From the NCBI GenBank assembly GCA_038087015.1, contig JASBNA010000022.1, positions 124,001 to 188,000 of the forward strand: DNA of 64,000 nucleotides, written 5' to 3'. This document shows, piece after piece, positions 11,619 through 61,665 of the stretch. The stretch comes from Cerrena zonata (Eukaryota; Basidiomycota; Agaricomycetes; Polyporales; Cerrenaceae). Within the stretch, counting starts at the first letter, position 1, and each line of letters begins with the position of its first letter. The translations under genes and the position numbers were made by a program. The notes beneath the pieces were generated by a model. It was not told where the DNA came from, searched no databases, and worked only from the letters and a program-made list of their open reading frames with translations.

Positions 11619-14600
11619 CTACCACCAAGGTGGGGTGCAAGCTACACTTGTGCGAAGTTCCTCAAGATTGAGCATTTCGACTTGTTGACCGTCTAGGAAA
11701 ACATCTTCAGTGGGAATGTCTCCAAGAGTAGTGTAGAGAGTGCCAGAATTTGAGTGAAAGTTGGGAGAATTCGAGAGAGGAATGGGAGAGAATTCGAGAG
11801 GAAACGCGGTCTTGTCCGCGCGGGTGGGATTGAGTTGCTTCCGTTTAAGAGGGGGGTTCTCCATTGACTGGTGGCCTTGCCGATAATGAAACCGCTTGAC
11901 ACGGTCGAGCGCAAAAGCACCTTTCAGCTCGGTACCATCGAGTTCCGCCAATTTGTAGAAACGATCAACAATGTCTTTCACCACGTATGGCCCAGCCCAT
12001 CGCAAGGCTCCCTTGTTGCCTTTCTGATTGTCGAGCCACGTCTGGTGCACGAGGACCAATGTACCTTTCTCTAACATCTCCGCTAGTCGTCCTTCATTAC
12101 GTCTAGTATGCTCGTCGGTTGCCTTTTTACGAGCCTCGTTAAGCCTATTGAAGGCAATCTGAAGGTCATCATTTCGACGAGTGATTTGTTGAGTCCGGAG
12201 TGCAATAAGGTCAGCCGAGTCCTTGACAGAATACCAATCAAGGCAAGACCATGTTCGGTCAGCGATGAGATAACCGAAGACAGGGTTTTGGCCATAGAGG
12301 AGGTAGTAGGGAGTGTAACCGGTCATACGAGAGGTGGTAGTACGCATAGCGAGAGCGGCGGCGGGTAGGTAGAGTGGCCAATTAGCAATGTTGGTACCAC
12401 ATGATTTGAACAGAGCTTGTTTGAGTGTCTGGTTAGCTCGTTCGACCACACCGTTTGCCTGAGGATGATAGGGAGCAGTCAGTACACAAATGATTCCATA
12501 CTTCTCGAACAGGAGTTTCACAGCGCCCTTGAATTCAGAGCCATTGTCACAAGTGAACACCGGAATACAGGAAAATCGACAGATAATGTCAACATAGATG
12601 AAACGGGCCCAAGCCTTTGAGGTATTTGCTTTGGCAGAGCGGTTTTCAACCCATCCAATTGCAGGCTCAATACTGTTAAGTATGTACCGCTTGCCTCCAC
12701 GACCCTTAGGCATGATAATGGTATCAAGGTGGAACCGACGTAGCATTGTCGTCACAAAGGTTGGGTTATAAGTCATAACCGGCCTCGATCGTGCCCGAAA
12801 TTGGCAAGCATTGCACGTCCGCACGAAGCGAGTGACCTCCTCATACATGTTAGGCCAGTAGTAGTCTTCTGAGAGCTTTTTATAAGTCCCATCTCGACCA
12901 CGATGTCCACCCATATTGTGAACCTCCGCTATAATAAAATTCCGGCGAGTTCGGTCAGTAATCACAAGACGTGGTTTCTGGTCCTTCTTCACCAGCCACA
13001 GACGATTTTCATGAAGAATAAAACGAGCACAATGAGTCAGAAAGCGCTTCCGTTCTCGCTCAGTTTTGAGACGAGGAGGTAGCAAGCCATCCTTGAGATA
13101 GGCATGAACTTCATCCCAAATTGAGTCGGTTTCTTCGTCTCGGGTGCCGAATTTATGGCCCACATTGGCGTACCAGGACTCGTCCACATCAGGGTACAAA
13201 GCTCGAGTCGAAAACGTGCGAAATTCGAAAGAATTTGAAGGAATAGGACCACTTTTGGTCGGGGGAGAAGTGATAAAAGCATACCGATATTCCGTTATCA
13301 AACAGGAAATCAACTCGTTACCGATGAGGTAGGACTCTGAGTGCTCCTGGGGAACGTTCCTGCGCATGAAATCGTTCTGGATAAACAAGCTTTCGCCTGC
13401 TGAGAGTGAGTTAGTGAAAACTGTGAGGCTGGCAACCTCTGAGTCAAAACTATCAGAATCCGAGAGACTCGTGAGAGCGAAACCGCCGTCGGCGGTGATT
13501 CCGAGGGTAGAGAGATGTTCTGTAGAATGTAGAGAGGTCAGATCGAAAAACGGAGCCACCGCTTGAGAAAGACGGAGGTGAGAATAGTGAGAATAGAGAC
13601 GGATAGCCTCTGGCAGGGTAATCTCAGAGTTTCCGAAGAATCTATCAAGATATTCTTCCGCGTCGGACTCGTCTGAGTCGTCGGGTGCAGGAGGACGTCT
13701 AGAGAGTCCATCTGTAGCTTGGTGAGCCGTTGCCGGGACATGATTGACTGAAAAATCGAAAAGTTGTAAGTAGGAGATCCACCGGGTCATAGGTGCATTG
13801 GGTAGGTCAGGAGACTTGATCATCTGCTTTAGAAACTTCGCGTCGACGTCTAGACGGAAGTGGATACCCCAGATACGATGCCGAAGCTCTTTGTATGCTC
13901 GAAACACGCCATAGAGCTCCAATTTCGGCTGAGAATACCTGGACTCGACCTCATTGAAGGTGCACGAGCCAAACAGAGCTGGGTGCTTCTCCTTGATGTG
14001 AATCTGGAAGAGAATCCAACCCGAACCATAGAGGGACGAGTCTACAGCGACTATGACAAGCCCATGGTCGTTTTCGCGAGGTCTGGTAGGAGAAATCTGA
14101 CGAGCGGTGTCGTAATCGACAGGACGAAGCACAGGAGTGCTGGTTATGCGTCGTTTGAGCAAATCCATGGCATCCTGGCACTCCTGAGTCCACTCGAAGT
14201 ATACTTCTTTGCGCGTGAGGTTAACGAGAGGGCGGGCAAGGACTGAGAAGCCTCGAATCCACCGACGAGCCACTCCGGCGATTCCTAGAAAGCTACGAAC
14301 TTCAGAGACGTTAGTACAAGCCGTCCACTTCAAAACCTTGTTAATGATTCCATGCTCAAGATGCCAGCCCTCCAACGAGACAATCGTGCCAACGATGTGA
14401 AGTCTCGGGGTGGCAGCGACCAGTTTATGGCCTGAGGCGGTGATTCCAGCCAATTCGAAGCGGTTGAAGACCTCATCTACAGTTGTAAGGAACTCGTAAA
14501 CGAAGCGACGGATGGGGGAGCCAGGAATGATAGGCTCATTGTTGTAAATCGAGCGAGGGCCTTTGATACCTACATCATCAAGAATGGAGTCAGCTTTTCG

Positions 14601-15665
14601 AGGACGAACAGGACCTAATGTATGATCAATGTCCCGTTGAAACTCTGCTGTGGCGTTGCAGTAGCCCATCGGTAAGGAGGTTAGACATAGTGCACCAAGG
14701 GGACACATGAAGGTGGTGAGATCTCGAGAGCTTTCAGCCAAAAAGCGACCGTCGTACCCAGCAAAGAGGTCAGCAATCATGTAGATCGCATGGCCTACAA
14801 AACTCTCTGCGAAATCGTTGATGTTAGGTAAGAGTGCTGAGTCTCGAATGCTGATGGCGTTCAAGGGTTGGAGATCGTGGATAATTCGATAGGAACCATT
14901 CTTCTTCTCGACGACGAAGATTCGAGAACGATAAGAGGAGGAAGAGGGTTCATATTTGCCAGCATCACGTTGCTCTACCAGTAGGTCGTAGATTGCTGAT
15001 TCAATCGCTTTAGGAAGACGTAGGGGAGGAAGTTGCCAAGGGATGTGTTCAATTACTGGCATCTCGTAGTCGGGGAAATATTCACGAGAGAAATGGCCTC
15101 TCTCAGCATCGGTGAAAGCGAGTGCATGTTGTCTGTGGTTGAGCACATAGACAAGAAGATCAATCTCGGTAGGACCAAGAAAACCTTCTGGGATAGTGGA
15201 CAGAATCGTGTTGAGACGCTCGAGAGTGAGACGAGAGGTTGGTTGGAAAGATGAGAGAGATGGAGGATTGATAGGAAGTGGCTCTAGTTGCTGCTCGGGT
15301 ATAGGTTTGAAGACCTGCGCTGATGGTTTAGGCATATAAGTAGGTACTGGTCGAACCTTTTGGTCAACCAGTTTGTACCGTTTTTTCGCAGGCGAAGCAT
15401 ACCAGGTATCTTCAGAGAGAGCTCGTTGTACCCAGGGTGAGTTAGTAGACAAAACAGGAGAATTTAGAGAGAGAGAAGAGGAACTGAAGTAGAAAGAACG
15501 AAGTAGAGAATCAAAATTAGATGGGGGAAAAAGTGACTGCATCACTTCAATTTCCGAAGGAGCATAATTAAAAGAATCGCCTAGTAAGGCATATAACGAA
15601 CGCCCTAAGGTAGCCGGAGGCACAGCGGACATCCGTCGTACAACTTGTACCGTGCTCCGATTCAA
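11619..15665 (-). CDS. Gypsy pol polyprotein: reverse transcriptase, RNase H, integrase
   Basis: A single open frame of about 1348 codons. Residues about 230-400 are the reverse transcriptase, with fingers IFVVEKKNGSYRIIHDLQPL, the LTSLPMGYCNATAEFQ block and a catalytic variant ILDDVGIKGP in place of YxDD. RNase H follows with VDSSLYGSGWILFQ, an ELYGVFRA block and DGLSRRPP. The integrase has a zinc-binding HH-CC unit (HNMGGHRGR ... CNACQFRARS) and a DDE core including FTCDNGSEFKG and YHPQANGVVERANQTL. No chromodomain is seen after the integrase. The frame is -1 relative to gag and overlaps its stop by four bases (TTGA). Because it has no ATG at the junction, it is probably made by frameshifting or reinitiation at a run of five T. 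No lesion is visible. Confidence 0.92.
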   Translation of the reverse strand: MNRSTVQVVRRMSAVPPATLGRSLYALLGDSFNYAPSEIEVMQSLFPPSNFDSLLRSFYFSSSSLSLNSPVLSTNSPWVQRALSEDTWYASPAKKRYKLVDQKVRPVPTYMPKPSAQVFKPIPEQQLEPLPINPPSLSSFQPTSRLTLERLNTILSTIPEGFLGPTEIDLLVYVLNHRQHALAFTDAERGHFSREYFPDYEMPVIEHIPWQLPPLRLPKAIESAIYDLLVEQRDAGKYEPSSSSYRSRIFVVEKKNGSYRIIHDLQPLNAISIRDSALLPNINDFAESFVGHAIYMIADLFAGYDGRFLAESSRDLTTFMCPLGALCLTSLPMGYCNATAEFQRDIDHTLGPVRPRKADSILDDVGIKGPRSIYNNEPIIPGSPIRRFVYEFLTTVDEVFNRFELAGITASGHKLVAATPRLHIVGTIVSLEGWHLEHGIINKVLKWTACTNVSEVRSFLGIAGVARRWIRGFSVLARPLVNLTRKEVYFEWTQECQDAMDLLKRRITSTPVLRPVDYDTARQISPTRPRENDHGLVIVAVDSSLYGSGWILFQIHIKEKHPALFGSCTFNEVESRYSQPKLELYGVFRAYKELRHRIWGIHFRLDVDAKFLKQMIKSPDLPNAPMTRWISYLQLFDFSVNHVPATAHQATDGLSRRPPAPDDSDESDAEEYLDRFFGNSEITLPEAIRLYSHYSHLRLSQAVAPFFDLTSLHSTEHLSTLGITADGGFALTSLSDSDSFDSEVASLTVFTNSLSAGESLFIQNDFMRRNVPQEHSESYLIGNELISCLITEYRYAFITSPPTKSGPIPSNSFEFRTFSTRALYPDVDESWYANVGHKFGTRDEETDSIWDEVHAYLKDGLLPPRLKTERERKRFLTHCARFILHENRLWLVKKDQKPRLVITDRTRRNFIIAEVHNMGGHRGRDGTYKKLSEDYYWPNMYEEVTRFVRTCNACQFRARSRPVMTYNPTFVTTMLRRFHLDTIIMPKGRGGKRYILNSIEPAIGWVENRSAKANTSKAWARFIYVDIICRFSCIPVFTCDNGSEFKGAVKLLFEKYGIICVLTAPYHPQANGVVERANQTLKQALFKSCGTNIANWPLYLPAAALAMRTTTSRMTGYTPYYLLYGQNPVFGYLIADRTWSCLDWYSVKDSADLIALRTQQITRRNDDLQIAFNRLNEARKKATDEHTRRNEGRLAEMLEKGTLVLVHQTWLDNQKGNKGALRWAGPYVVKDIVDRFYKLAELDGTELKGAFALDRVKRFHYRQGHQSMENPPLKRKQLNPTRADKTAFPLEFSPIPLSNSPNFHSNSGTLYTTLGDIPTEDVFLDGQQVEMLNLEELRTSVACTPPWW

Positions 15666-17968
15666 AAATCCGAGTGATCGTGGGCGAGACGATCAGTGTT
15701 TCGGCGATGGTCTGGAGATACCAACTTAAGAGAAAGAACAGGACCGCGTTCATCACCATTAGGACGAATAGAAAGGGTCATAGGCCCTGAGCGATGGTAC
15801 TCGATAGCAGCAGAATACCACTGGAGCCAAGGTTGCCCCAAGATGACATCTTGCTTGCCTATACTCCCCTCGGATGAGACAAAATAATGATGGTCAAAAC
15901 GATGTCCACCAATCTCAGTCGCGAGGTCACGGGCACAACCCTGAAGTCCAACCGGGGCACCGCTAACTCCTTTAAGAGACCAGCGAGACCCGTCAATATC
16001 GAGGGGAACATTGAGAACCTCGAATGCCGAAGCAGACATGAGATTTAACTCTGAACCAGTGTCTATCATGCATGAAAGAATTGCACCACCGATACGGGCC
16101 TCGAAACGACCAGTGGTCATGGCGAAAAGACGAGAAGGATTTAGAGAAACAGTGTTAACATACTGTCCGAGGATTTCGGAGACATCTTCATCCTCATCCA
16201 AAGTAACGTACGCCCGAGCCGTTGATGCTTCGGTGACATCTTGGTTCGCTAGATACTGCGGGGCAAACTCTTCAACCTCTACCGCCTTAGCAGCATACTC
16301 ACGACGAGTGCGGGTGAGACCTTGGAACCGCTTTTGCAATTCCGGTGATGAAGCAAGTAGCTCCTTAAGTGAGATCGTAACCTGGGTATCCAGTAGTCGA
16401 GACTGCAGATCGTCAACATCCAGAGACTCTTGAATGTCTGATGTAAAACAGTAAGAAGGTCCTCGTCCTCTAGTATTCTCCTTCATTTCCACATCTCCAT
16501 CGCTAGCAGGTGTGGTAGGACGAGTGGGACGTTTCGCCGCAGGTTTCGGTTGGCTTGCCGGAGTGCGAATTTCGTCTACAGAAGGTTGGGGAACAGTTTG
16601 TGTTGTTGTCGTAGGCTGTGGAGCTGATGGACGTGATGATGAAGGTGGGTGTTGAACCTTAATGGAAGGTGGTTGACCTTTGCCAGAGACTCTAAGCTTG
16701 ATACCCGTAGCCGCATCGTCTTTCTTGCCGATAGGATCAAATCGTACTTCCTTCTTCTGAGAACGTGCTGCTGGATAGAGGGTGTACCCATCAAGAGCGG
16801 CTACTGCATAGACATCGCCTGAAATAACGTCTGAACCACCAGAGACAATGCCAACCGACATAGCACTAGCACTAGTCCCCATATGAGGGGGTACCTCACG
16901 ACCTTTTCCCTTCCCTTCCCAGCGAATCACGCCTGCAATGCCTCCTGACCCTGGTCGTACTAATGGCAACTCCGAGTTATCCACTTTCACCAATCTCCCT
17001 TCCGCGCTATACTTCAGCAACCCTTCGTCAACCAACTTCTTCGTCTCCGGACAATTCCTCATCCCAATGCGATGAGCATCGACTTGATCGCACATCCAAC
17101 AGCGTTTAGGACCTTCGATAGATCCCGGACGGCCTGAGCTTGCAAGCTGAGCCTGATGCATTTCGGCCATAGCGAGAGATAGCTGCTCCATACGTGAGGC
17201 GAGCTCGGCTACAGGATCGGCCTTCTCTGCTGACCTCGACTGCTCTTCTGACGCTGTAGTCGCCGTTTTCGACTTCGCTTTCTTCTTGGTACGTCTCTTC
17301 TTTCTCCTCATGCGTTCGCCGTCGGAGCCAGAGTCTGTACCAGATGAACTGCCGTCAGACTCTGCCGAAGAACCCGTATCAGTGAGGTCCAGATGCTCTT
17401 CGCCGTCATCGTCTGAAAGAACATCAATGTCGTTCTCGTCGTATAGCGCGCGCACGAAATCTAGCACCGATGTCATGGAATCGGGTTTGTTACGGTCGGT
17501 AGATTTAAGCTTGGAGCGAATCTTGTCCTTGACTGAATTCGGAAGTCCTTGATAGAAGCGTAGATCACGCTTCGTATCGGTGAGCTGTCCACGTTCCTTG
17601 AGATCACCAGCGATACGCATAAATTTGCGTACATAGTCGTCTAGATCACGACGGACTTTAAACCTAGATGAGGAGGTCTTTTGCGTCAGTGACTTCAACT
17701 GCTCTAGCATCGCACGCGGTTTCTGATCGCGGGACTTGTAGAGCTTCAGTAACGCTTCCTTCGCTTTATCCCAATCCTGACCTGTTGCAAGGTCATCTAA
17801 ATGACGGATAACATCGGCTACACTTTCTGAGCAGTAACGGATGACAAGCTTGGGTAGCTTCTTGTCCTCTACTCCAGAAGCAGTAGCTACCTCCTCAAAC
17901 TCCTCCAAAAAATCCTTGATATGTTTCCCTTTAAAATACGGCGCACCTTTACTCTTCGGCCTCGGCAT
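15662..17968 (-). CDS. Gypsy gag-protease polyprotein
   Basis: The open frame extends upstream to 18115 but has no ATG there. The first ATG, at 17968, starts MPRPKSKGAPYFKGKH and is the probable start. The retrotransposon gag domain follows (FLEEFEEVATASGVEDKK ... DWDKAKEALLKLY). A variant zinc knuckle CWMCDQVDAHRIGMRNC (C-x2-C-x5-H-x6-C) and a Ser/Pro-rich linker come next. The aspartic protease carries the catalytic IDTGSELNLMS and the flap-side VILGQPWLQW. The stop TGA lies in GATTTTTGA, where pol begins in the -1 frame. The reading frame is undamaged. Confidence 0.9.
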   Translation of the reverse strand: MPRPKSKGAPYFKGKHIKDFLEEFEEVATASGVEDKKLPKLVIRYCSESVADVIRHLDDLATGQDWDKAKEALLKLYKSRDQKPRAMLEQLKSLTQKTSSSRFKVRRDLDDYVRKFMRIAGDLKERGQLTDTKRDLRFYQGLPNSVKDKIRSKLKSTDRNKPDSMTSVLDFVRALYDENDIDVLSDDDGEEHLDLTDTGSSAESDGSSSGTDSGSDGERMRRKKRRTKKKAKSKTATTASEEQSRSAEKADPVAELASRMEQLSLAMAEMHQAQLASSGRPGSIEGPKRCWMCDQVDAHRIGMRNCPETKKLVDEGLLKYSAEGRLVKVDNSELPLVRPGSGGIAGVIRWEGKGKGREVPPHMGTSASAMSVGIVSGGSDVISGDVYAVAALDGYTLYPAARSQKKEVRFDPIGKKDDAATGIKLRVSGKGQPPSIKVQHPPSSSRPSAPQPTTTTQTVPQPSVDEIRTPASQPKPAAKRPTRPTTPASDGDVEMKENTRGRGPSYCFTSDIQESLDVDDLQSRLLDTQVTISLKELLASSPELQKRFQGLTRTRREYAAKAVEVEEFAPQYLANQDVTEASTARAYVTLDEDEDVSEILGQYVNTVSLNPSRLFAMTTGRFEARIGGAILSCMIDTGSELNLMSASAFEVLNVPLDIDGSRWSLKGVSGAPVGLQGCARDLATEIGGHRFDHHYFVSSEGSIGKQDVILGQPWLQWYSAAIEYHRSGPMTLSIRPNGDERGPVLSLKLVSPDHRRNTDRLAHDHSDF

Positions 17969-18114
17969 AGGCGGCCGAAATATAGCAGGTAGTTCCTGAC
18001 ATCGTCTCGACAGGTTGATAGCTCCAGTACTAGTATAGACAAGATCTCGATAAGAAGGCGACACAATCGGTGTCGTAGGACAGACGACCAGAGACGTAGA
18101 ACCCAGAGAACACA

Positions 18115-18134
18115 CCCCCCTGCGGTGGTCACCA
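18115..18134 (-). other. Probable tRNA primer-binding site of the Gypsy element
   Basis: On the minus strand the 5' LTR ends ...GCAACA, followed after three T residues by TGGTGACCACCGCAGG. This begins with the TGG expected opposite a tRNA CCA tail. The priming tRNA was not identified. Confidence 0.4.
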
Positions 18135-25108: not shown

Positions 25109-26449
25109 TCATACCAATCTGGGTGTCGACCAATCTATCCACTCCTCCGGGTTCCATGTGACATTGTTGAAGACGTCGTTGATCGTGAAAACCGTCGTAT
25201 TAGCCGGTTCACCTAACAGGAACCTGTCGATAAAGGAGAACAGTTGATCATTCAGGGTGGAGGGGAATGCACAATGGGCATGCCCTCCGACCTGAACAAA
25301 CCCATGATTGTTAGGTACACCCAACGCTTCCCAAACGGAATGAGCAGCAGTCATGCACCCAAAGCCGCACATCGGGCTCAGCCATACGAAATCGGTATTC
25401 TCGAATGAGATCATGGGACGTGGAGCAACCATACCAGCAAGGAAGTGATGGTCGTAGGGTAAGGCTGATATGTTGTGAACGAAGTTTTCGAAGTTGGTAG
25501 AGAACCAAACGTTCTCCTGGACGATCTCTACGGCCTCCTGTACGACACTCCCGTTATCCTGCTCGAACTTGGATAACCTCCAACACGTGTCCCCTCCTGA
25601 CCCAGACTCTTGTGGAATGGTGAGGGCAATACGTTCCTCGAAGGCTCCTGCCATGAGTGCGCCTTTACCGTTCCGTGAACAGCCCGTCACCCCGATTTTA
25701 TTGACGTTGATTTGAGCCGCAGGCGTGCGTTCGAGGACATCGATAATACGGCTGACTCCCCATACCCACGCCGTCATAGAGCTAGCGGTAGCGTTGTGCC
25801 CATACAGGTTATAGAAGAGTCCGACTCCTCGGCTGGATAGGTCGTTCTGTTGGGCCATTCCACTGTTATCATAGAACATAACAGCGATCTACAACGTCAA
25901 CTGTGAGTATTTATTTATCGTTGTGTTGTCTATTGATCAAACTCACTCCGTCGGGAATCGGAATACTAGGTCCTCCGTAACCAATAATCAACGGCCAACC
26001 TCCCTTCGGCGCATTCCCGCTCGGATACGAGATTGTTGGTGTGAAGGTAATCTCGTTATCAGCCGATAAGCTAGCCGTGATAGTTAGATTGGCTGTAGTG
26101 TTGGCCCTAGAGAAGCTTCTAGATAGTCGTGGAGGCTTAGGAGGGAAACTCCTAGCTTCATATCCTTGGATTAACGAGCTGATCTGGCGGCGACGACATG
26201 CCCAGTCGTTTTTTGTGCGAACATGCTGTCCGTTATTCAGAAGGAAGGGGTTGGGCAATTTGGTGTCGTTGAAGCGGGGATGAAAGACGGCGTAGAGCAC
26301 AAATTGGTGACTAGTATGAAAGCGACGCGTGTGAGATTGTGTTTCCCGAACATGCTCATGAATTACTGACCATCATTATCAAGTTCTTGTGGTAGCACAG
26401 TCACCACTATAGAGAGAAGTACGAAGTGAACGAAAAGGTTGAAGAGCAT
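25109..26449 (-). CDS. Glucuronoyl esterase (CE15), secreted; apparent one-base frameshift
   Basis: Cleaves ester bonds between glucuronic acid side chains of xylan and lignin alcohols, outside the cell. ATG 26449 gives a signal peptide [18 protein letters not shown], spliced to an N-terminus with CSTPSFIP. The body has [11 protein letters not shown] and [10 protein letters not shown], then a phase-0 intron to [14 protein letters not shown]. The serine motif is [13 protein letters not shown], the acidic residue lies in IPQESGSGG, and the histidine is in [10 protein letters not shown]. The end is [11 protein letters not shown] at 25109. Between CSTPSFIP and NDTKLPNP the frame shifts by one base, which one more C in the C-run at 26276-26279 would restore. 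All catalytic residues are present, so a sequence error is more likely than gene loss. There is no CBM1. Confidence 0.85.
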
Positions 26450-48984: not shown

Positions 48985-49928
48985 CTATGCGTGTGGCTTG
49001 CTGACTGTGGCACCCTTAACCTGGGCTTGGACCTTAGGCGCAGCTGCTTTACTAGCTACGGGTGCAGGTGTCTTAGCCTTAGCAGCTTTCGTGGCATTCG
49101 GCAATCTCAGCTTCTTGCTACCCTTTTTGTGGCCTTTCTTGTGACCATGGCTCTTCTTTCGACCGTGTTGACCGTGAGCCTTCTTGTGTCGTGCCTCAAG
49201 ATCGAATCTAGAGGAAGAATATAAATATCAGAATCCAAAATGGGCAACAGGAATACTGTTAATTACCCTTCATCACGGGCAATAGCAAAGTTCGGGTGTT
49301 CACTGATCCACTTGCCCAACGCCGGTGTGATCTGAGAGCTAATGACCCGTTTGGCAAGTCTGGAAAAAGGTGAGTTTTTGGAATGAAAATAGGAAAGTAT
49401 CACTTACTCTTCATCACGAGCGATGGCAGTGCCTCGGTGTTCACTTATAAACTTAACCAATGCAGGGTTGATCGGAGTGGTGGCAAATCTTTTCGCAAGT
49501 CTGGAAGAACTGTTAGTAAGTACGACACAAATCAAGATGGGATTACTTACTCATCATCACGAGCCTCCAAATCCATAGTCACATCACGAGCGATCTGAGG
49601 GTGGTGACGGACTAGTTGAGCCAGTGTCAGCCGTTTCATGATTCTAAAGACGAGGTTAGCTGATAGGTCTTAGACTACTAGGTCCAGTAACACTCACTCC
49701 GCCTCAGCCCTGCGAACAAGAGATTCGCTGGAAGACGGCTCGCGCGTCGCGATAAGGGGGGAGCCAAAGTGAGGACCGCGTAAAATTCCATCTCTAGATA
49801 ATCAAAAGGATGATCAGTGGGATCGATTTTAAGATCGATGATGCTAGTACTCACATTGGGGCAAAGGCAAAAGCAGGAACAGAGGAAGCGACAGCAACAG
49901 CAACAGCAAAAACGGAAGAAAGACGCAT
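48985..49928 (-). CDS. Secreted exon-repeat protein with Lys-Arg sites, Kex2-type peptide precursor candidate
   Basis: Exons on the minus strand: 49855-49928, 49698-49793, 49551-49643, 49408-49500, 49267-49359, 48985-49207; 223 residues in frame. MRLSSVFAVAVAVASSVPAF is a signal peptide. Exons 3, 4 and 5 are each exactly 93 nt, all bounded by phase-2 introns, and each encodes one unit: EIMKR-LTLAQLVRHHPQIARD, ELAKR-FATTPINPALVKFISE, ELAKR-VISSQITPALGKWISE, the last two ending IARDE. Each unit starts with a dibasic KR that Kex2-like proteases cut after, which would release peptides of about 26-31 residues. The last exon encodes a His/Lys-rich stretch (HKKAHGQHGRKKSHGHKKG) and an Ala/Pro/Lys tail. 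I do not recognise the family. Function as a peptide precursor is inferred; a structural wall protein is the alternative. Confidence 0.75.
49267..49643 (-). repeat. Three tandem 93-nt symmetric exons
   Basis: Exons 49551-49643, 49408-49500 and 49267-49359 have equal length and phase. The last two start ACTTGC and end GATGAAG, and the introns between them start GTAAGT and end TCCAG. This indicates duplication of an exon with its intron edges. Confidence 0.85.
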
Positions 49929-50032
49929 GTTGAATCAAAGCAATGTGTAGGTGAAGATTACTCGTAAAGTCGTAAAGGAAGTGACGTTGAATATGAAGAT
50001 TGTAGTCGTAAAATGAAACGTAAATGTTGGCT

Positions 50033-50089
50033 ACAAATTAGGTGGGCTCAGTAAGTCTCGATGCATACAGTTAATAGATACAGTGCTCA
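50033..50089 (-). other. Probable 5'UTR intron of the exon-repeat gene
   Basis: On the minus strand GTGAGCACTG begins and TTTGTAG ends a 57-nt interval about 105 bp before the ATG, in the same size class as the coding introns. Confidence 0.45.
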
Positions 50090-50165
50090 CCAACCAGCAC
50101 CAGCACTTGAAAATGAATTGAAATGAGCGAAAGGGCTGAAGTCTGTCACCTCAAACACACAGGCC

Positions 50166-50171
50166 TTTATA
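50166..50171 (-). promoter_or_regulatory. TATA box of the exon-repeat gene
   Basis: On the minus strand cagTATAAAggcc, 238 bp upstream of the ATG and upstream of the candidate 5'UTR intron. A strong core promoter fits a highly expressed secreted product. Confidence 0.5.
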
Positions 50172-51031
50172 CTGTTTGTTGACATGGTGTTTTTGCAATT
50201 AAGGGGGCGCCGTGGCTGAAAAGCGATGAATCCAGATCAACGGTGTACATCAAAAGCGCATGAATCACCTCCAGTTGATCGTCGTTTGACACATTCTCCA
50301 AGGGAGACCACCCAGATCAGTAAACCTATATGTTGACGCCTTCAGTGTGAGAACGTCGGAGCATTACCTATGCGTATTACATGCCCTATACGCAATATTT
50401 TCAAGCTATTGTAATGATAATCAAGGTAAGGTGAGCAGAAGCTTGACTGTTACAAAAATGCCATCACTACCACGCCGCAAATTTGGTGCTGGACAATAGC
50501 CGAGCATGCACAAACGTTGGATATTGATCCGCGTATCGTTATAAGGTACCTGAGGAGCGAGCTGAAGGACACACTTGATTGCAATATTGTATAAGCACAC
50601 AACGGTAACTTGGTAGATTGATATGAAGGCCAGAATATGGACCATGGTGAGAGTCGAGGCTCTAGAAAATGATCAATATTCAACAAGCATCAGCCTGAGA
50701 CAATAGCGACAGCGACGGAATAGGTTTTTGGATATAGTATTTGTATTTCCTCAACAGTAAGTATGGTCTGAGTATGCGACAATATTATGCAACGAGTCGG
50801 ATAAGGTAGCGTACAAGTACTACTTAGTTACAACCAGGCCCGTAACGTTAACGATCGAGCTTGAAAACTACTGATCGATCGAACGATACTGGTCTATGGC
50901 CGGGATACTGACGGCAGAGTACACTTACGCTAACATCCGAGTCATTCACACAGTAACCATGGACGTGATGGTTCATTTCCCGTTGTTTCTGCATACAACT
51001 ACATTATCAACCCCCTCTACGGGACTCCAAA
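50172..51031. other. Intergenic region
   Basis: Divergent upstream region of the exon-repeat gene and the F-box/pseudokinase gene. Overlapping minus-strand ORFs of 74-78 codons at 50421-50686 show no family features. No gene is called. Confidence 0.45.
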
Positions 51032-53386
51032 ATGTCGGAAGGAGATCTAACACGACGACTCGGACTCGGAGATACTCCGTCATTACTTCCATTCGATATA
51101 GTGGTCCAGATAGGACGAGCCCTACAGTTCCAAATGTCTGACAATCTCATTCGATATCTTGACAGACAGGTCGATATCCATGCTCTCCTCTCAACTCAAC
51201 ACACACTGTCAACCTGGTGCCTGGTATGTCGTATGTGGTATGACGCACTGAGCCCTGTGCTGCTCAGAAATGTTGTTCTATACCAGCATAAGCAAGCTTC
51301 ACGACTTAGCCGTATCCTTCGCCAAAAGGGACAATACACTGATACCATTGTACTGGACTGCGCCCAGTCAGCCAATTTGTGGACGCATATAGGGACGATG
51401 ACGAATCTCCGAAGCCTAACTACACTGGTAATCACTTACCTGGATCCATCCTCGGTACACCCAAATTTTTCCAAGGTTCTGAGTGTATTGCGTAGGATGT
51501 CATCTTACTGCAAGATTTACATTTTGGAGGTCAACTATAGGTCACTATTGCAGGTTTCCAAGATACTGAATGTCCTTCCTCCATTTGGGAACACTGTGCC
51601 TGGACGACCATCGTTTCCGATCACGATAAGGCCACTGCACAAGCCCGTGGATGGGGTAGTAGGATACACAGGTCACCTGCTTTTCCACGCACTTCAGAAA
51701 GATGCGTATGCGGACTGGAAACGAATGGACCTGGACTTCCGTGGGTTTATGAGAACCGATCACCACGATGACGAAGACCAACAAGTAGCCATGCTTGTGA
51801 ATAACTCATTGAAAATACTAGAACAACGTCTCGGCTTCGTCAAGCTGATTCGGTTCGATTCAATCTATTTTCCCAATGCCCGGAAGAATGTAAGTCATCA
51901 CGAGGGTTGAATATTCTATAGATAACATCTATAATTTGTGTCCATTGGACCAGCTCGATACGCTGCTATCTATCCTGCTACCGCTGCTCCAGGGAAAAGC
52001 CTTTGTATCAGGAACAGCTCATCAGCATGAGGTTATCTCAGAAGCCATATTTCGACTCCTATGGAACTATCACCCTTGTTTATCGCCCACTGGGGCCTCC
52101 ACGACACCACCAAACATAGATGGCGTACTAGCGCGATCACTAATAAATTGTTTGCAATCAGTAAGTTCAAATCCAATCACATGGTTCAGGAATATTGACC
52201 GACGAATGTAACGAGTTCGTCGATATCTTCGAACATTCGCTTTATCACAACGTTCGCCGAGCTTTCGTACTTTACCTTGCCGAGTTATGCTGGATAACGG
52301 GAACGATCCCTCAAAGTATGGATCTCGATGTCGAATACACTTCGTCAGACCCTTTCGCAATTGGTCATAGCTCAGATATCTTCAAAGCAACATGGCAAGG
52401 TCAAATTGTGGCTGTGAAGTCCATCCGTGGATCTCCTGACAGAGAGTCAGCCTCCAACGATGTACGTGTGTGGCCTCTTTTCGTTGCGTCCATCAGAAAT
52501 GAAAATTGAAAACATGCTTTCATAGCTATTCTGTCATGAAGTTGTCACTTGGCGACAGCTTCGACACGAGAATATTCTCACTCTAATCGGGACCTGTAGT
52601 CCTAGAAGCGCAGGTCTCCTCCCTTGCTTGGTGTATCCGATGTATTCGACTGGTAATATCAATATACGACAAGCCCTGGACCTGTGGTCAGTCGAAGTAA
52701 AACAACTGGAAGATTGGGTACGTCAACGTAGAATATTCACGATGCGCTCATCTTCAATATCTTGTATGGATAGCTCTATCAAATTGCTAGAGGAGTGGAG
52801 TATTTACATAGCGAGAACGTCGTTCACGACGCCATTCGAGGAGTAAGTATCTACCGTCGATCCTCTTCTATTCAATTTTTACACCAACTTGCATTTACAC
52901 TAGAATAACATTATAATCACTGATAACCACTGCGTCAAAATAGACAATTTCGGTTTCTCGAAATTGTTTAGAACACCCGGGTTCCCTTCCATTCCGACTT
53001 ACGGCGGTTCAGTCCGCTGGATGCCACCAGAGCTACTTAATGAGTATGCCAACGCCGTACCGAATACGACATCAGACGTCTATTCGTTTGCATGTACATC
53101 TGTCGAAGTAAGCCATCTCTTACTTTACAATAGCAACGGGCTCATGACTGGTATGATTTAGCTGTACACACGAGATCGACCTTTCCCAGAGGTGCCTACG
53201 GAGACGGAGGTGATAACTCAAATAGTCAATGGTGCTCGACCTTCACGACCATCTGCATTATCTTGGAAAACGATGAGTAAACAGCTGTGGCAACTCCTCG
53301 AGAGATGCTGGGATCGAGATGATGACAAACGCCCCACTATGAAGGAAGTAGTATTCGAATTATCGAAACCTGATTGGCGTCAGTAG
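51032..53386 (+). CDS. F-box protein fused to a TKL-like pseudokinase domain
   Basis: Exons 51032-51889, 51954-52160, 52216-52461, 52526-52717, 52774-52842, 52904-53107 and 53162-53386 are all phase 0 and join to 666 residues. The N-terminal F-box is LLPFDIVVQIGRAL ... STWCLVCRMWYDALSPVLL, then a leucine-rich middle. The kinase domain has a degenerate glycine loop (IGHSSDIFKATW), VAVKSIRGS with the lysine, LRHENILTLIGTC and GVEYLHSENVVH. The catalytic loop is HDAIRGNNII, where relatives have HGDLKGAN, so the catalytic Asp is Ala. The metal site reads IDNFGF instead of ADFGL, so that Asp is Asn. RWMPPEL, DVYSFACTSVELYT and RCWDRDDDKRPTM complete the fold. Fusion rests on frame continuity. The intron at 52161-52215 has a weak GAG acceptor, so two adjacent genes are possible. 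Confidence 0.65.
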
Positions 53387-57283: not shown

Positions 57284-60200
57284 ATGCGTGCTCTCCTCAG
57301 ACCGCTGGCAACACACTCCGTGTTCTCGCCCATTGAAGCTATTGTATCCGTATTCGTCCTCGCAACTCTAGCCTACTTTCACATCCTCACCGGCATCAAA
57401 CACTCGTCCTTCTTCGCTCCCACTTTCCCGTCTGCTCTTCGTCCGGCCTATGCTAGGTTGTCCAAAGGTCACTGGAGTAATGCTATCAAGGCAGAGGGTG
57501 CGATAGAGCTTCAGCAGATTGTCTTTGCTTTGGACGACAAAGCGCGTAGGGTGAGTTCATCACTTTGCTCCAGGGTCCATGGCACTAGAAGCTGCTATGG
57601 TGGTTTACCTTCTGTCCCTGGCTCGTACCACTTCTGCCATCCAACTCTATGTCGCGGCGGCTCTGACTGTGGCGTGACGCTCGCGCATTGCATTCCTATC
57701 AGTCCGTGGCGTGTTGCAGTTCCTCTCATCGTGTTGCATGTTGCATGATGTGATGCGTCTGCGCACAACACCGCAAACGTTAATGACTTGCGGCACCAGA
57801 GAAGCTTAACGGAGTTTCACCCTCCTCATCTCCGCTTCATCATGTGGACACTGTGACGTCCTCTCTAGCGTCTCCAATAGAGTTGCCGTGAACCTTTCCA
57901 TTCGACTCTGCACATCAGTCATGAGACCTCCATATTGACATGTTATTTCATCTATTAGGTCAATCCCGCACTCGCTCTCAACTCTTCGTCGTTATCCACC
58001 ATCGCCAACCAACTTATTGAAGATGTCCTCTCCCTCTCTGGCAAATCTTATGGCGAGATCTGCCATTCGCCATCGAATGTCTCTACTTGCTTCACTCACC
58101 TCGATGACAACACCCTAACGCTTTCGTTTGCTCCTTCTGCCCGTGATGACTGGACTTCTGCTTTGAAACAAGCAGGCAAATTCCAAGTCGGTGACTACCA
58201 ATTTGAAGTCCAAAGTATCAAACGGGAAGAGCCTATTAGCGAGATGAAGAGTGGTAAATGGGTTGCTTATGCTCTCCGTGCTCTTGTTTTGCGATTCTGG
58301 GAGCTCACAAAGGCAAGCAAATTTGAATTCTTTGAATTCTTCCGATCCTAACAACCCTACAGAAGGCAGACTCGCTCGATATCCTTCTCGTTCTTATCGG
58401 CTACATCCTCATGCACTCGACATTCCTCCGTCTTTTCTTCTCTTCCCGTGCTCTCGGGTCCAACTTCTGGCTCTCGACCGGTATCTTCCTCTCGTCATGC
58501 TTCGCCTTCCTATTCACTCTCCCCTTATGTCGTTTCTTCGGTATCCCCCTCGATCCCGTCGCTCTCACAGAAGCTCTCCCCTTCCTCGTCTGCACAGTCG
58601 GGTTCGAGAAGCCCCTCCGTCTAGCTCGTGAGGTCATGAAGCACGAATACGTTTTCACTCCCCTACCCCCTTCATCACCCAGACCTGCTGTCTCAGGACA
58701 ACCCCAGCCCGTAAGCATGAAGCCCGCTGGTGAAGTCGTTCTCGAGGCTCTTGACCGTGCAGGCAACTCGATCGTTCGTGATTACGCTCTCGAGATCGCT
58801 GTTCTGCTCGTCGGTGCATATAGCCGAGTGGGTGGATTGAAGGAGTTTTGCGCACTTGCCTCGTTGGCTATGACTCTTGATTGTGTCATGCTCGGGACGT
58901 TCTACACTGCTGTTCTTACTGTCATGGTTGAAGTCCGTCGAATCAAAACAGTCAGGACACTCAAGAAGGAGCAAGAGTTGAACTCTGCGATGACGAGTGG
59001 TGCTCAGACTCCAAGACTCAAACCTGCTTTGTCTCGCACGCAAACTCCCAAACCTGGTGAACTGACTCGAGTGAAGAGTGTCGGCGAGAAGCTGTCCGAT
59101 GCTCTTCTTGGTGTCAAAGGTTCCCTCTTGACTAACCAACCCAAGCCTACGACCAAGCGCGATACTGACAGCAGACGTCAACAAGACCTCGAAGAGAACC
59201 CGATGGCGAGACTCAAACTCCTCGTCCTCGCTTCGTTCCTCACTCTCCACATCCTCAACTTCTCAACGACTCTCACTCCCACTGCTGCTGTCGCTCGTCA
59301 TGGCAAGCACTCACCCGTTGTCCTCCCTCAGCGTGTCGATCTCACTTCTCCCGCTATCTCGTCGGTGTTGGACGTTCTCTCTGTCAAAGAATTCGAGGCA
59401 TCCGAGTTGATTGATAAGGATGTTGTCGTCCGTGTCGTTCCTCCTATGCACATCCATGTCCTCCCCCTTGCCGTCGCCCACCCGAACCTCTCGTTCATCT
59501 CTCATGCCTCTTCCCCACACAACGCCGGATCCTTCGAAAGTTTCATGTCCTCTTGGTCTTCCCTCGTCGGCGACCCGGTCATCTCAAAATGGATCGTCGT
59601 CCTCCTCTTCGTCAGTGTCGTACTCAACGGGTATCTCTTGAAAGGTATCGCAGCAGGCAGTGGGCTCGGTATCGCTGCCTTCGTTAGTAGGACCGGGAAT
59701 AAGAGTGTTAAATTCTCTGGTGGGAGGGAAGCTGGTGCGGAAGCGGAGGTTACGGATGATGATGTGCTCGAGTTGAAACCCAAGAAACGGGCTAGTGTGT
59801 TCATCGAGTCTTCTGCACCTGCACCTAAAGCTGTTCTCGCTCCTGTCATCGAAGAACCCGTCAGCGTCGCCCGATTCGAAAACGTCGTTATCGAGAAACA
59901 GAAACTCGCACCTCTCACTCTCGATCTCGCCACCGTCGATGAGAAACTCTCACACGTCCAACCCCTCGCCACACCCTCATTCACACCCTCAGCATCATAC
60001 ACTCCCTCAGGGTCATTCACACCCAAAGAAACTTCATTCTCCGGAGAAGTCCGTTCGATCGAGGAATGCATTGATATCTTTGAGAACGGACCGAGACCGG
60101 TGTCTGCGTCGTTGGCGATGTTGAATGATGAGGAGGTGGTGTTGTTGGCTCAGAAGGGGAAGATTGCGGCTTATGCGCTTGAGAAGATGTTGGGTGATTT

Positions 60201-61665
60201 GGATAGGGCTGTTGCGATTCGGAGGAAGTTGATTTGTACGTGCCTTCCCCCTCTTTTTCTCTTTCCTTCTTTTTTACTTATTCTGGTTTTTTGGGTGTGT
60301 AGCCCGTGCGACGAAAACAAAGACACTCGAATTCTCGGACGTCCCTATGTACCACTACGACTACTCCCGCGTCATGGGTGCCTGCTGCGAAAACGTCATC
60401 GGATACATGCCCCTCCCCCTCGGCATCGCAGGTCCCCTCAAAATCGACGGCGAATCCTACCACATCCCAATGGCCACCGCCGAAGGCACACTCGTCGCCT
60501 CAACCTCCCGAGGCTGCAAAGCCCTCAACGCCGGCGGAGGCGTCACCACCGTCCTCACTTACGACGGCATGACCCGAGGTCCCGCTATCGATTTCCCGAA
60601 TATCAAACAGGCTGCTGCGGCGAAGTTGTGGATCGAGAGTCCGGAGGGGTATGCGATTATCAAGGAGTCGTTTGAGAGTACGTCGAGGTTTGCGAAGTTG
60701 CAGAATATCAAGTGTGGGATGGCGGGACGGACGTTGTTTGTGAGGTTTGCGACTAGGACGGGGGATGCGATGGGGATGAATATGATTTCGAAAGCTACTG
60801 AGAAGGCTTTGGAGACTCTTGGGAAAGAGTTCCCGGGGGCGATCGTACTCGCATTATCAGGAAACTACTGCACGGACAAGAAACCTGCTGCGATCAACTG
60901 GATCGAAGGGCGGGGGAAGAGTATCGTTGCTGAGGCGGTGATTCCGGGGAAGATTGTCAAGTCGGTGTTGAAGACGACGGTGGAGGCGTTGTGTAATTTG
61001 AATACGAAGAAGAATCTGGTGGGGAGTGCGATGGCGGGCTCGATTGGGGGTTTTAATGCGCATGCTGCGAATATCCTGACGGCGATCTTTTTGGCTACTG
61101 GCCAGGATCCTGCGCAGAATGTGGAGAGTTCGATGTGTATGACTTTGATGGAACCGTGAGTCTTCTGTCTACATATCCTCCTTTTTCTCCGTTCTAATCC
61201 CTAATTTCATTTGATAGACTAAACAACGGCGAAGACCTCCTAGTAACACTCTCCATGCCCTGTATCGAAGTAGGCACCGTCGGCGGCGGAACCGTCCTCG
61301 CCCCCCAAGGCGCCATCCTCGAAATGCTCGGCATCAAAGGCGCACACCAAACCAACCCCGGTCAAAACGCCCAACAACTCGCCCGCATCGTCGCCTCCGC
61401 ATGCATGGCAGGAGAACTCTCGCTCATCAGCGCTCTTGCCGCAGGTCATCTTGTTAGAGCACATCTTGCGCATAATAGGTCTCAGGTGAATACACCGGTA
61501 CCGTCGAGACCGTTGACGCCTGCACCTGGGACACCGAAACTTGTGAGTTTGGATGCGGGGGATGAGGGGGCGAGAGTGGGGAGAGGGTTGATTAGGCCGG
61601 GGGCGCCGTCGGAGAGTGTGTCGACTGATGTTGTTCCTACGACGACGGAGACGAAGTCTGAGTAG
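57284..61665 (+). CDS. HMG1: 3-hydroxy-3-methylglutaryl-CoA reductase
   Basis: Rate-limiting enzyme of the mevalonate pathway: reduces HMG-CoA to mevalonate with NADPH, in the ER membrane. Exons 57284-57550, 57959-58312, 58363-60235, 60303-61155 and 61218-61665 give 1264 residues in frame. The N-terminal region includes the sterol-sensing-like membrane domain ([20 protein letters not shown]). Catalytic motifs are [17 protein letters not shown], the Glu in [22 protein letters not shown]-binding DAMGMNMI, the Lys in [16 protein letters not shown], the Asp in [18 protein letters not shown], and the terminal His in [13 protein letters not shown] Pro-rich tail of about 60 residues follows. Intron 1 is unusually long (408 nt) and intron 2 uses a GC donor. 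Confidence 0.96.

What the first reader, a model, noticed from the sequence alone, without database searches (positions are those of the whole stretch)
48985..49928. Secreted precursor built from three identical-length, phase-2, KR-headed exons
Seen directly: after a signal peptide, three consecutive exons of exactly 93 nt, all flanked by phase-2 introns, each encode a 31-residue unit starting (E)xxKR and ending ARDE/ARDD. This is an expandable cassette: any number of units keeps frame. The dibasic site per unit is the hallmark of Kex2-processed multi-peptide precursors (alpha-factor-like pheromones, repellents, dikaritin-type precursors), but the unit sequence and the His/Lys-rich cationic tail match nothing I recognise. 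It may be a new family of secreted fungal peptides (signal, antimicrobial or surface-active).
Basis: partly seen in the sequence, partly recalled or inferred. Interest (0 to 1): 0.85.

Follow-up and report, generated by a model that had tools for sequence, protein, structure and literature searches.

The report
One-peptide-per-exon secreted fungal peptide precursor
A wood-decay fungus carries a small gene that appears to make a secreted protein meant to be cut into peptides of about 29 residues, with each peptide and its cutting site on its own 93-base exon, so copies can be added without breaking the gene; a sister gene in the same genome carries four such units.

Summary
The gene (minus strand, 49928-48985, Cerrena zonata) has six exons joined by phase-2 introns; exons 3-5 are 93 nt each with KR at unit residues 4-5. 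The spliced product equals NCBI protein QCA50_011805 (223 aa). New here: the same genome holds a sister gene (C20, with a 97%-identical copy on C119; QCA50_011469, 239 aa) with four KR-headed, nearly identical units (ELAKRIIGSEITPALSKWMAQHPNIKWARDD): three on internal 93-nt phase-2 exons, the fourth on the terminal exon, with 58-nt introns. Unit number thus differs between the genes. Across seven distinct units only E1, K4, R5, A28 and R29 never vary; except against the diverged unit 1, synonymous change per site far exceeds replacement. The sister gene fits the published sequence definition of a KEX2-processed repeat protein (KEP) as far as I could check; the window gene fits less well (two clearly alike units, one diverged). 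Word-limited searches of 5.8 billion proteins found no relative outside this species. No UstYa match lies on the three contigs, so a dikaritin is unlikely. The peptides are neutral to acidic; the basic tail occurs only in the window gene. Best reading: an orphan KEP family whose repeat is an exon. Cleavage and function are not shown.

The parts
49855..49928 (-). Exon 1 (74 nt): start codon and hydrophobic signal peptide MRLSSVFAVAVAVASSVPAFAFAP
   Evidence: the sister gene's exon 1 is also 74 nt; no signal-peptide predictor was available
49698..49793 (-). Exon 2 (96 nt): pro-segment ending LVRRAEAE
49709..49714 (-). RR codons (residues 52-53), possible first dibasic cut
   Evidence: counted from the exon start
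49551..49643 (-). Exon 3 (93 nt), unit 1: EIMKRLTLAQLVRHHPQIARDVTMDLEARDD
   Evidence: edges alike, core diverged
49631..49636 (-). KR codons of unit 1
   Evidence: counted from the exon start
49408..49500 (-). Exon 4 (93 nt), unit 2: ELAKRFATTPINPALVKFISEHRGTAIARDE
49488..49493 (-). KR codons of unit 2
   Evidence: counted from the exon start
49267..49359 (-). Exon 5 (93 nt), unit 3: ELAKRVISSQITPALGKWISEHPNFAIARDE
49347..49352 (-). KR codons of unit 3
   Evidence: counted from the exon start
48985..49207 (-). Exon 6 (223 nt incl. stop): FDLEAR then Lys/His/Ala-rich tail, 74 aa counted from the split Gly codon, net charge +18
   Evidence: no homologue of the tail found; absent from the sister gene's product
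49929..50176 (-). 5' flank resembling that of the sister gene, including a shared stretch GCTGGTGCTGGTTGGTGAG / GTTGGTGCTGGTTGGTGAG (possible 5'UTR exon and donor, by eye)
   Evidence: blastn 63% over 328 nt, E 7e-24, spanning upstream and exon 1

Best explanation
The gene encodes a secreted precursor of the KEX2-processed repeat protein (KEP) type, belonging to a two-gene family so far seen only in Cerrena zonata. The chain enters the ER by its signal peptide; a kexin in the late secretory pathway cuts after each xxKR; a Kex1-like carboxypeptidase trims KR. This would release linear peptides of about 29 residues: LTLAQLVRHHPQIARDVTMDLEARDDELA, FATTPINPALVKFISEHRGTAIARDEELA, and a third core, VISSQITPALGKWISEHPNFAIARDEG, carrying or later losing the basic tail. 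The sister gene would give three almost identical peptides (IIGSEITPALSKWMAQHPNIKWARDDELA type) plus a terminal 26-residue form. The repeat is an exon: each internal 93-nt phase-2 exon carries one cleavage site at its 5' end and one peptide core, so duplicating, losing or skipping exons changes peptide number without changing frame. Shown: exon structure as modelled, second gene with a different unit number, constraint on the peptide sequence, a kexin gene. Inferred: cleavage, trimming, secretion, any exon skipping. The most likely role is a diffusible peptide acting on other organisms or other hyphae (signal or interaction), by analogy with studied KEPs.
For: Model identical to QCA50_011805. 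Sister gene with four KR-headed units on three internal 93-nt exons and the terminal exon, 58-nt introns, product identical to QCA50_011469. KR in 7 of 7 distinct units; E1, K4, R5, A28 and R29 the only invariant columns of 31, and ELAKR in 4 of 4 units of the C119 copy. Synonymous above replacement change per site: C20 u1-u2 6/20 vs 2/70 sites (Fisher 1e-3), u1-u4 12/20 vs 4/70 (6e-7), u3-u4 14/20 vs 8/70 (7e-7), C22 e4-e5 14/21 vs 16/69 (4e-4); rounded counts, four pairs tested. Sister gene: seven KR/RR fragments, four alike, against Le Marquer's at least four fragments and at least three alike and Umemura's at least three repeats of at least 8 aa between Kex2 sites. Kexin-like exons with catalytic-type blocks and TM/acidic tail on C3. 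Repeat size within the published KEP range of 3-352 aa. Peptides from other agaricomycete KEPs have been detected by mass spectrometry (PMC9769878).
Against: No transcript or peptide data. The window gene has only two clearly similar units; unit 1's core is no more similar than shuffles, and its dN/dS against units 2 and 3 is 0.82 and 0.54, so it may fail the 'three alike' rule. The count of full internal 93-nt exons is three in both genes. KR is also an ordinary pair in basic proteins. No conservation across species could be shown. AlphaFold gave no confident fold (mean pLDDT 36 and 48); this neither helps nor excludes. A weak match (E 0.022) of the sister protein to designed 31-residue helical repeats, not seen with three period-keeping permutations, leaves room for an uncut helical repeat protein. 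Pfam lists DUF3460 for the sister protein just over its cut-off (26 vs 25 bits, best stretch 18 residues).
Confidence: 0.66

Rival explanations
1. A secreted repeat protein that is not cut: each 31-residue unit forms a short helix pair, and KR is a conserved surface feature of a helix. The window copy uses its basic tail to stick to wall glycans or other anions.
For: 31 residues is the period of HEAT-like designed repeats (recalled); AlphaRep chains match the sister protein at E 0.022-0.96, while none of three permuted controls matches them (one control matched an unrelated chain at E 0.45). AF2 draws two helices per unit.
Against: Pfam scan up to E 10 lists nine families and no HEAT family. 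pLDDT 36, pTM 0.23, although solenoids usually fold well in AF2 (recalled). The single AlphaRep alignments are poor (11.7 bits, i-Evalue 1.1). The edges and KR are kept even in unit 1, where the core is not.
Confidence: 0.2
2. A dikaritin-type (ustiloxin-like) precursor whose cores are cyclised by UstYa enzymes.
For: Signal peptide plus Kex2-type repeats; UstYa genes exist in the genome (45 exon matches).
Against: None of the 45 matches lies on C22, C20 or C119. Cores are about 29 aa. The window ORFs that gave Pfam hits are housekeeping, carbohydrate-esterase or mobile genes.
Confidence: 0.04
3. An antimicrobial or cell-wall protein in which the Lys/His tail is the working part and the repeats are a pro-region.
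For: Tail of 74 aa with net charge +18.
Against: The sister gene's product lacks the tail but keeps four nearly identical units; constraint lies on the units.
Confidence: 0.1

Closest known systems
KEX2-processed repeat proteins (KEPs; Le Marquer 2019, Umemura 2020, Vogt 2022)
   Same: Signal peptide, dibasic sites separating repeated cores, orphan sequence, unknown role; sister gene meets the sequence criteria that I checked
   Different: The repeat is a separate 93-nt phase-2 exon. The main texts of the two surveys hold no 'exon' or 'intron' and Vogt's holds 'exon' 0 times; no paper of the library holds both 'kex2-processed repeat' and 'exon'
Ascomycete alpha-factor type pheromone precursors
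   Same: Secreted precursor with several KR-headed copies; leader ends RR-AEAE, faintly like the KR-EAEA spacer (recalled)
   Different: Cores of 26-29 aa against 9-24 aa; no XA/XP run before each core (one core begins FA); basidiomycete host
Dikaritin/ustiloxin precursors
   Same: Signal peptide and Kex2-type repeats
   Different: No UstYa match on the three contigs; long cores
HEAT/AlphaRep helical repeats
   Same: 31-residue period; weak match E 0.022
   Different: Not significant, no Pfam HEAT match, no confident fold

Membership tests
KEP | Signal peptide | tested here: inconclusive
   Hydrophobic N-terminus on a 74-nt exon in both genes; SignalP not available
KEP | At least four KR/RR fragments (Le Marquer) | tested here: met
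   Window gene 5 fragments, sister gene 7
KEP (sister gene) | At least three similar fragments / at least three tandem repeats of 8 aa or more | tested here: met
   Four alike, best self-shift identity 0.97 at 31 residues. Own approximation, not the authors' FIMO or seed scripts
KEP (window gene alone) | At least three similar fragments | tested here: inconclusive
   Two alike, third weakly (alignment scores 40 and 47 against 68); best self-shift identity 0.65 over 31, 0.58 over 40 residues
KEP | Cleavage at the dibasic sites in vivo | not testable with these tools
   Needs mass spectrometry
Dikaritin/ust-RiPS | UstYa (DUF3328) gene nearby | tested here: not met
   0 of 45 matches (E up to 0.001, best candidates only) on C22, C20 or C119
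HEAT repeat | Profile match or confident solenoid fold | tested here: not met

The most novel reading that the evidence does not exclude
Fungi use exon duplication, and perhaps exon skipping, to set the number and variety of peptides cut from one precursor: a symmetric phase-2 exon is the unit of peptide evolution, one invariant cutting site per exon and a core free to change, giving lineage-specific signal peptides.
Probability: 0.37. Interest if true: 0.65.

Novelty: new variant of a known kind. Interest (0 to 1): 0.43.

Why it matters
KEP surveys look for repeats in annotated proteins. A gene whose repeats sit on tiny separate exons could easily be mis-spliced in annotation and missed (inference). 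It also gives a clean case to study how secreted fungal peptides multiply: two sister genes with three and four units, and a near-copy showing what looks like exchange between units.

Tried and rejected
Pfam for the window protein: only FAM167 at E 0.13, rejected. Pfam for the sister protein: nine families listed up to E 10; LPD22 is below its cut-off, DUF3460 one bit above its own, the rest below theirs, best stretches of 11-52 residues; one search also shows three precomputed Pfam numbers for it, two of them these. I take them as chance summed over repeats. Rfam: 0 matches in the window at gathering scores. Three protein searches found only P0001 and P0002; only the 7999 candidates sharing most words were scored, only 35. 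Genome searches for further paralogues: with the window protein and two units only C22, C20 and C119; with the sister gene's leader only C20 and C119, so that search misses even the known window leader and says little about distant copies. PDB profile search of the units: nothing significant (best E 0.074); window protein: best E 0.017, an enoyl-CoA hydratase, not pursued. AF2 models were too poor for a fold search, so none was run. Literature: listings showed no fungal precursor with one peptide per exon; I read passages of the one paper (Glomeromycotina surface proteins, not this), and only titles and abstract starts of the rest. One search matched 12,157 papers of which 12 were listed, so it tests little. 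Papers seen: PMC9769878 outline, Results parts 1-2 of 3, Discussion, passages; PMC7329392 abstract, Detection section, term counts; PMC6339444 abstract, sections 6, 10 and 24, term counts; PMC6223083 passages. Cationic-peptide idea rejected on charge. Kex2 match on C24 set aside as a probable yeast contaminant. One search was a badly chosen short pattern and told nothing.

I lowered the novel case from 0.40 to 0.37 and interest from 0.45 to 0.43 for that.

Full report
1. Observation. The gene lies on the minus strand, start codon at 49928, stop codon ending at 48985. Splicing by standard GT..AG signals gives exons of 74, 96, 93, 93, 93 and 223 nt; every intron is phase 2. The 223-residue product is identical to a public protein, QCA50_011805 of Cerrena zonata, a polypore (Polyporales, Cerrenaceae). 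The public annotation may be ab initio, so it is only partly independent support.

2. How strong is the repeat? Exons 4 and 5 are plainly duplicates (68% DNA identity without gaps; 20 of 31 residues, 0 of 20000 shuffles reach the score). Exon 3 shares its edges and KR (7 and 6 of 31 residues with exons 5 and 4), but its core is no more alike than shuffled sequence. It is either an old, diverged copy or a separate exon of the same size.

3. The sister gene. A search of the same genome found a second locus on contig C20 and a near copy on C119. The two regions are 97-98% identical over about 6 kb and may be alleles or a recent duplication. Splicing gives exons of 74, 114, 159, 93, 93, 93 nt, all joined by phase-2 introns, and a terminal exon whose coding part is 94 nt including the stop. 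Each of the four KR-headed units is preceded by an intron of exactly 58 nt. The C20 product equals QCA50_011469 (100% over 239 aa). Its four units are almost the same peptide; units 1-3 are 90% alike in DNA, unit 4 is 75-82% like them. The last unit ends in a stop (WAREY) and there is no basic tail. The 5' flank and exon 1 of the two genes align (63% over 328 nt), so they share ancestry. The C119 copy has four units too.

4. Selection. Between units of the sister gene, change is concentrated at synonymous sites (dN/dS 0.06-0.20 for the six C20 pairs; Fisher 1e-3, 6e-7 and 7e-7 for the three C20 pairs tested). The fourth unit is nearly saturated at synonymous sites against units 1-3 (dS 0.9-1.75) yet keeps the peptide, while the intron before it is 93% identical to the intron before unit 3. 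This mixture suggests conversion between units plus constraint on the peptide. For the window gene e4-e5 the ratio is 0.19 (Fisher 4e-4); e3 against e4 and e5 gives 0.82 and 0.54, near saturation, and e4 against C20 u2 0.42. Numbers are small and pairs are not independent. Over seven distinct units (the four C119 units left out as near copies) E1, K4, R5, A28 and R29 are the only invariant columns of 31. E1 is partly set by the splice junction.

5. Machinery. A kexin-like gene is present on C3: a fragment matches kexin structures (E 1e-30), and blocks with the catalytic-type motifs, a membrane span and an acidic tail are readable in its exons (motifs recalled). A second P-domain match on C24 is an intronless, 34.5% GC, yeast-like kexin and is probably contamination. 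The P4 residue of each site is Leu or Ile (LAKR, IMKR), as in alpha-factor (LDKR); that preference is recalled, and the paper passages I read stress P1 and P2. UstYa genes exist in the genome but no match lies on these contigs.

6. What it does. Predicted peptides are 26-29 residues, net charge 0 to -3, with a short amphipathic stretch. They are not cationic antimicrobial peptides by charge. In Coprinopsis cinerea six KEP deletions had no phenotype in pure culture, and synthetic KEP peptides had no antibacterial effect (PMC9769878, Results parts 1-2 and Discussion read). By analogy I favour a secreted linear peptide used towards other organisms or other hyphae. This step is inference.

7. Rivals. 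An uncut helical repeat protein is the main one: AlphaRep chains match the sister protein at E 0.022, three period-keeping permutations match no AlphaRep, and AF2 draws two helices per unit, but at pLDDT 36. The match's single alignments are poor (11.7 bits, i-Evalue 1.1) and no HEAT family is listed by Pfam. Dikaritin and tail-driven readings are weaker.

8. Known or new. KEPs are common (7878 in 1345 of 1461 strains, 2560 stand-alone; abstract of PMC7329392), so an orphan KEP alone is ordinary. What I did not find described is the exon as the repeat unit: 'exon' occurs 0 times in the main text of the three KEP papers and no paper of the library holds both 'kex2-processed repeat' and 'exon'. 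Supplements were not open to me, and the library lacks most subscription papers. I did not test how often fungal exons repeat at equal length genome-wide, because this genome is not given as a file.

9. Neighbourhood. I scanned 19 of the 58 ORFs of at least 110 aa. Nine gave Pfam hits: a gypsy-type retroelement (two ORFs), a fungal kinase, a glucuronyl esterase, HIRA, VPS11 (two ORFs) and sterol-sensing/HMG-CoA reductase (two ORFs); 10 had none. Nothing seen suggests a biosynthetic cluster.

Noticed in passing
G000:C24:550677 (L035): Intronless yeast-like kexin, GC 34.5% against 47.3% in the window, GC3 19%, one CTG codon in 838: contig C24 of this assembly looks like yeast contamination.
   Followed up: partly
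L017 (C20) and L018 (C119): Regions of the sister gene 97-98% identical over about 6 kb on two contigs; alleles left uncollapsed or a recent duplication. Unit 2 of C119 is closer to unit 1 than unit 2 of C20 is (95% against 90%), as if converted.
   Followed up: partly
L017, C20 about 583550-583590: Downstream of the sister gene's stop a short stretch reads MDHRKGRRR and stop, by eye like a remnant of the basic tail exon (sequence); not tested.
   Followed up: no
window 51032-51910 (+) and L017 about 5 kb: By eye an F-box-like N-terminus in a gene next to each of the two precursor genes; no Pfam match for the window ORF.
   Followed up: no
window 11619-18115 (-): Gypsy-type retroelement: DUF4100 and gag-protease-like matches, RNase H and integrase zinc-binding domains.
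   Followed up: no
window 25109-25879 (-): Fungal glucuronyl esterase (GCE_fung, E 8e-85).
   Followed up: no
window 58411-61159 (+): Sterol-sensing domain and HMG-CoA reductase in neighbouring ORFs, probably one gene.
   Followed up: no
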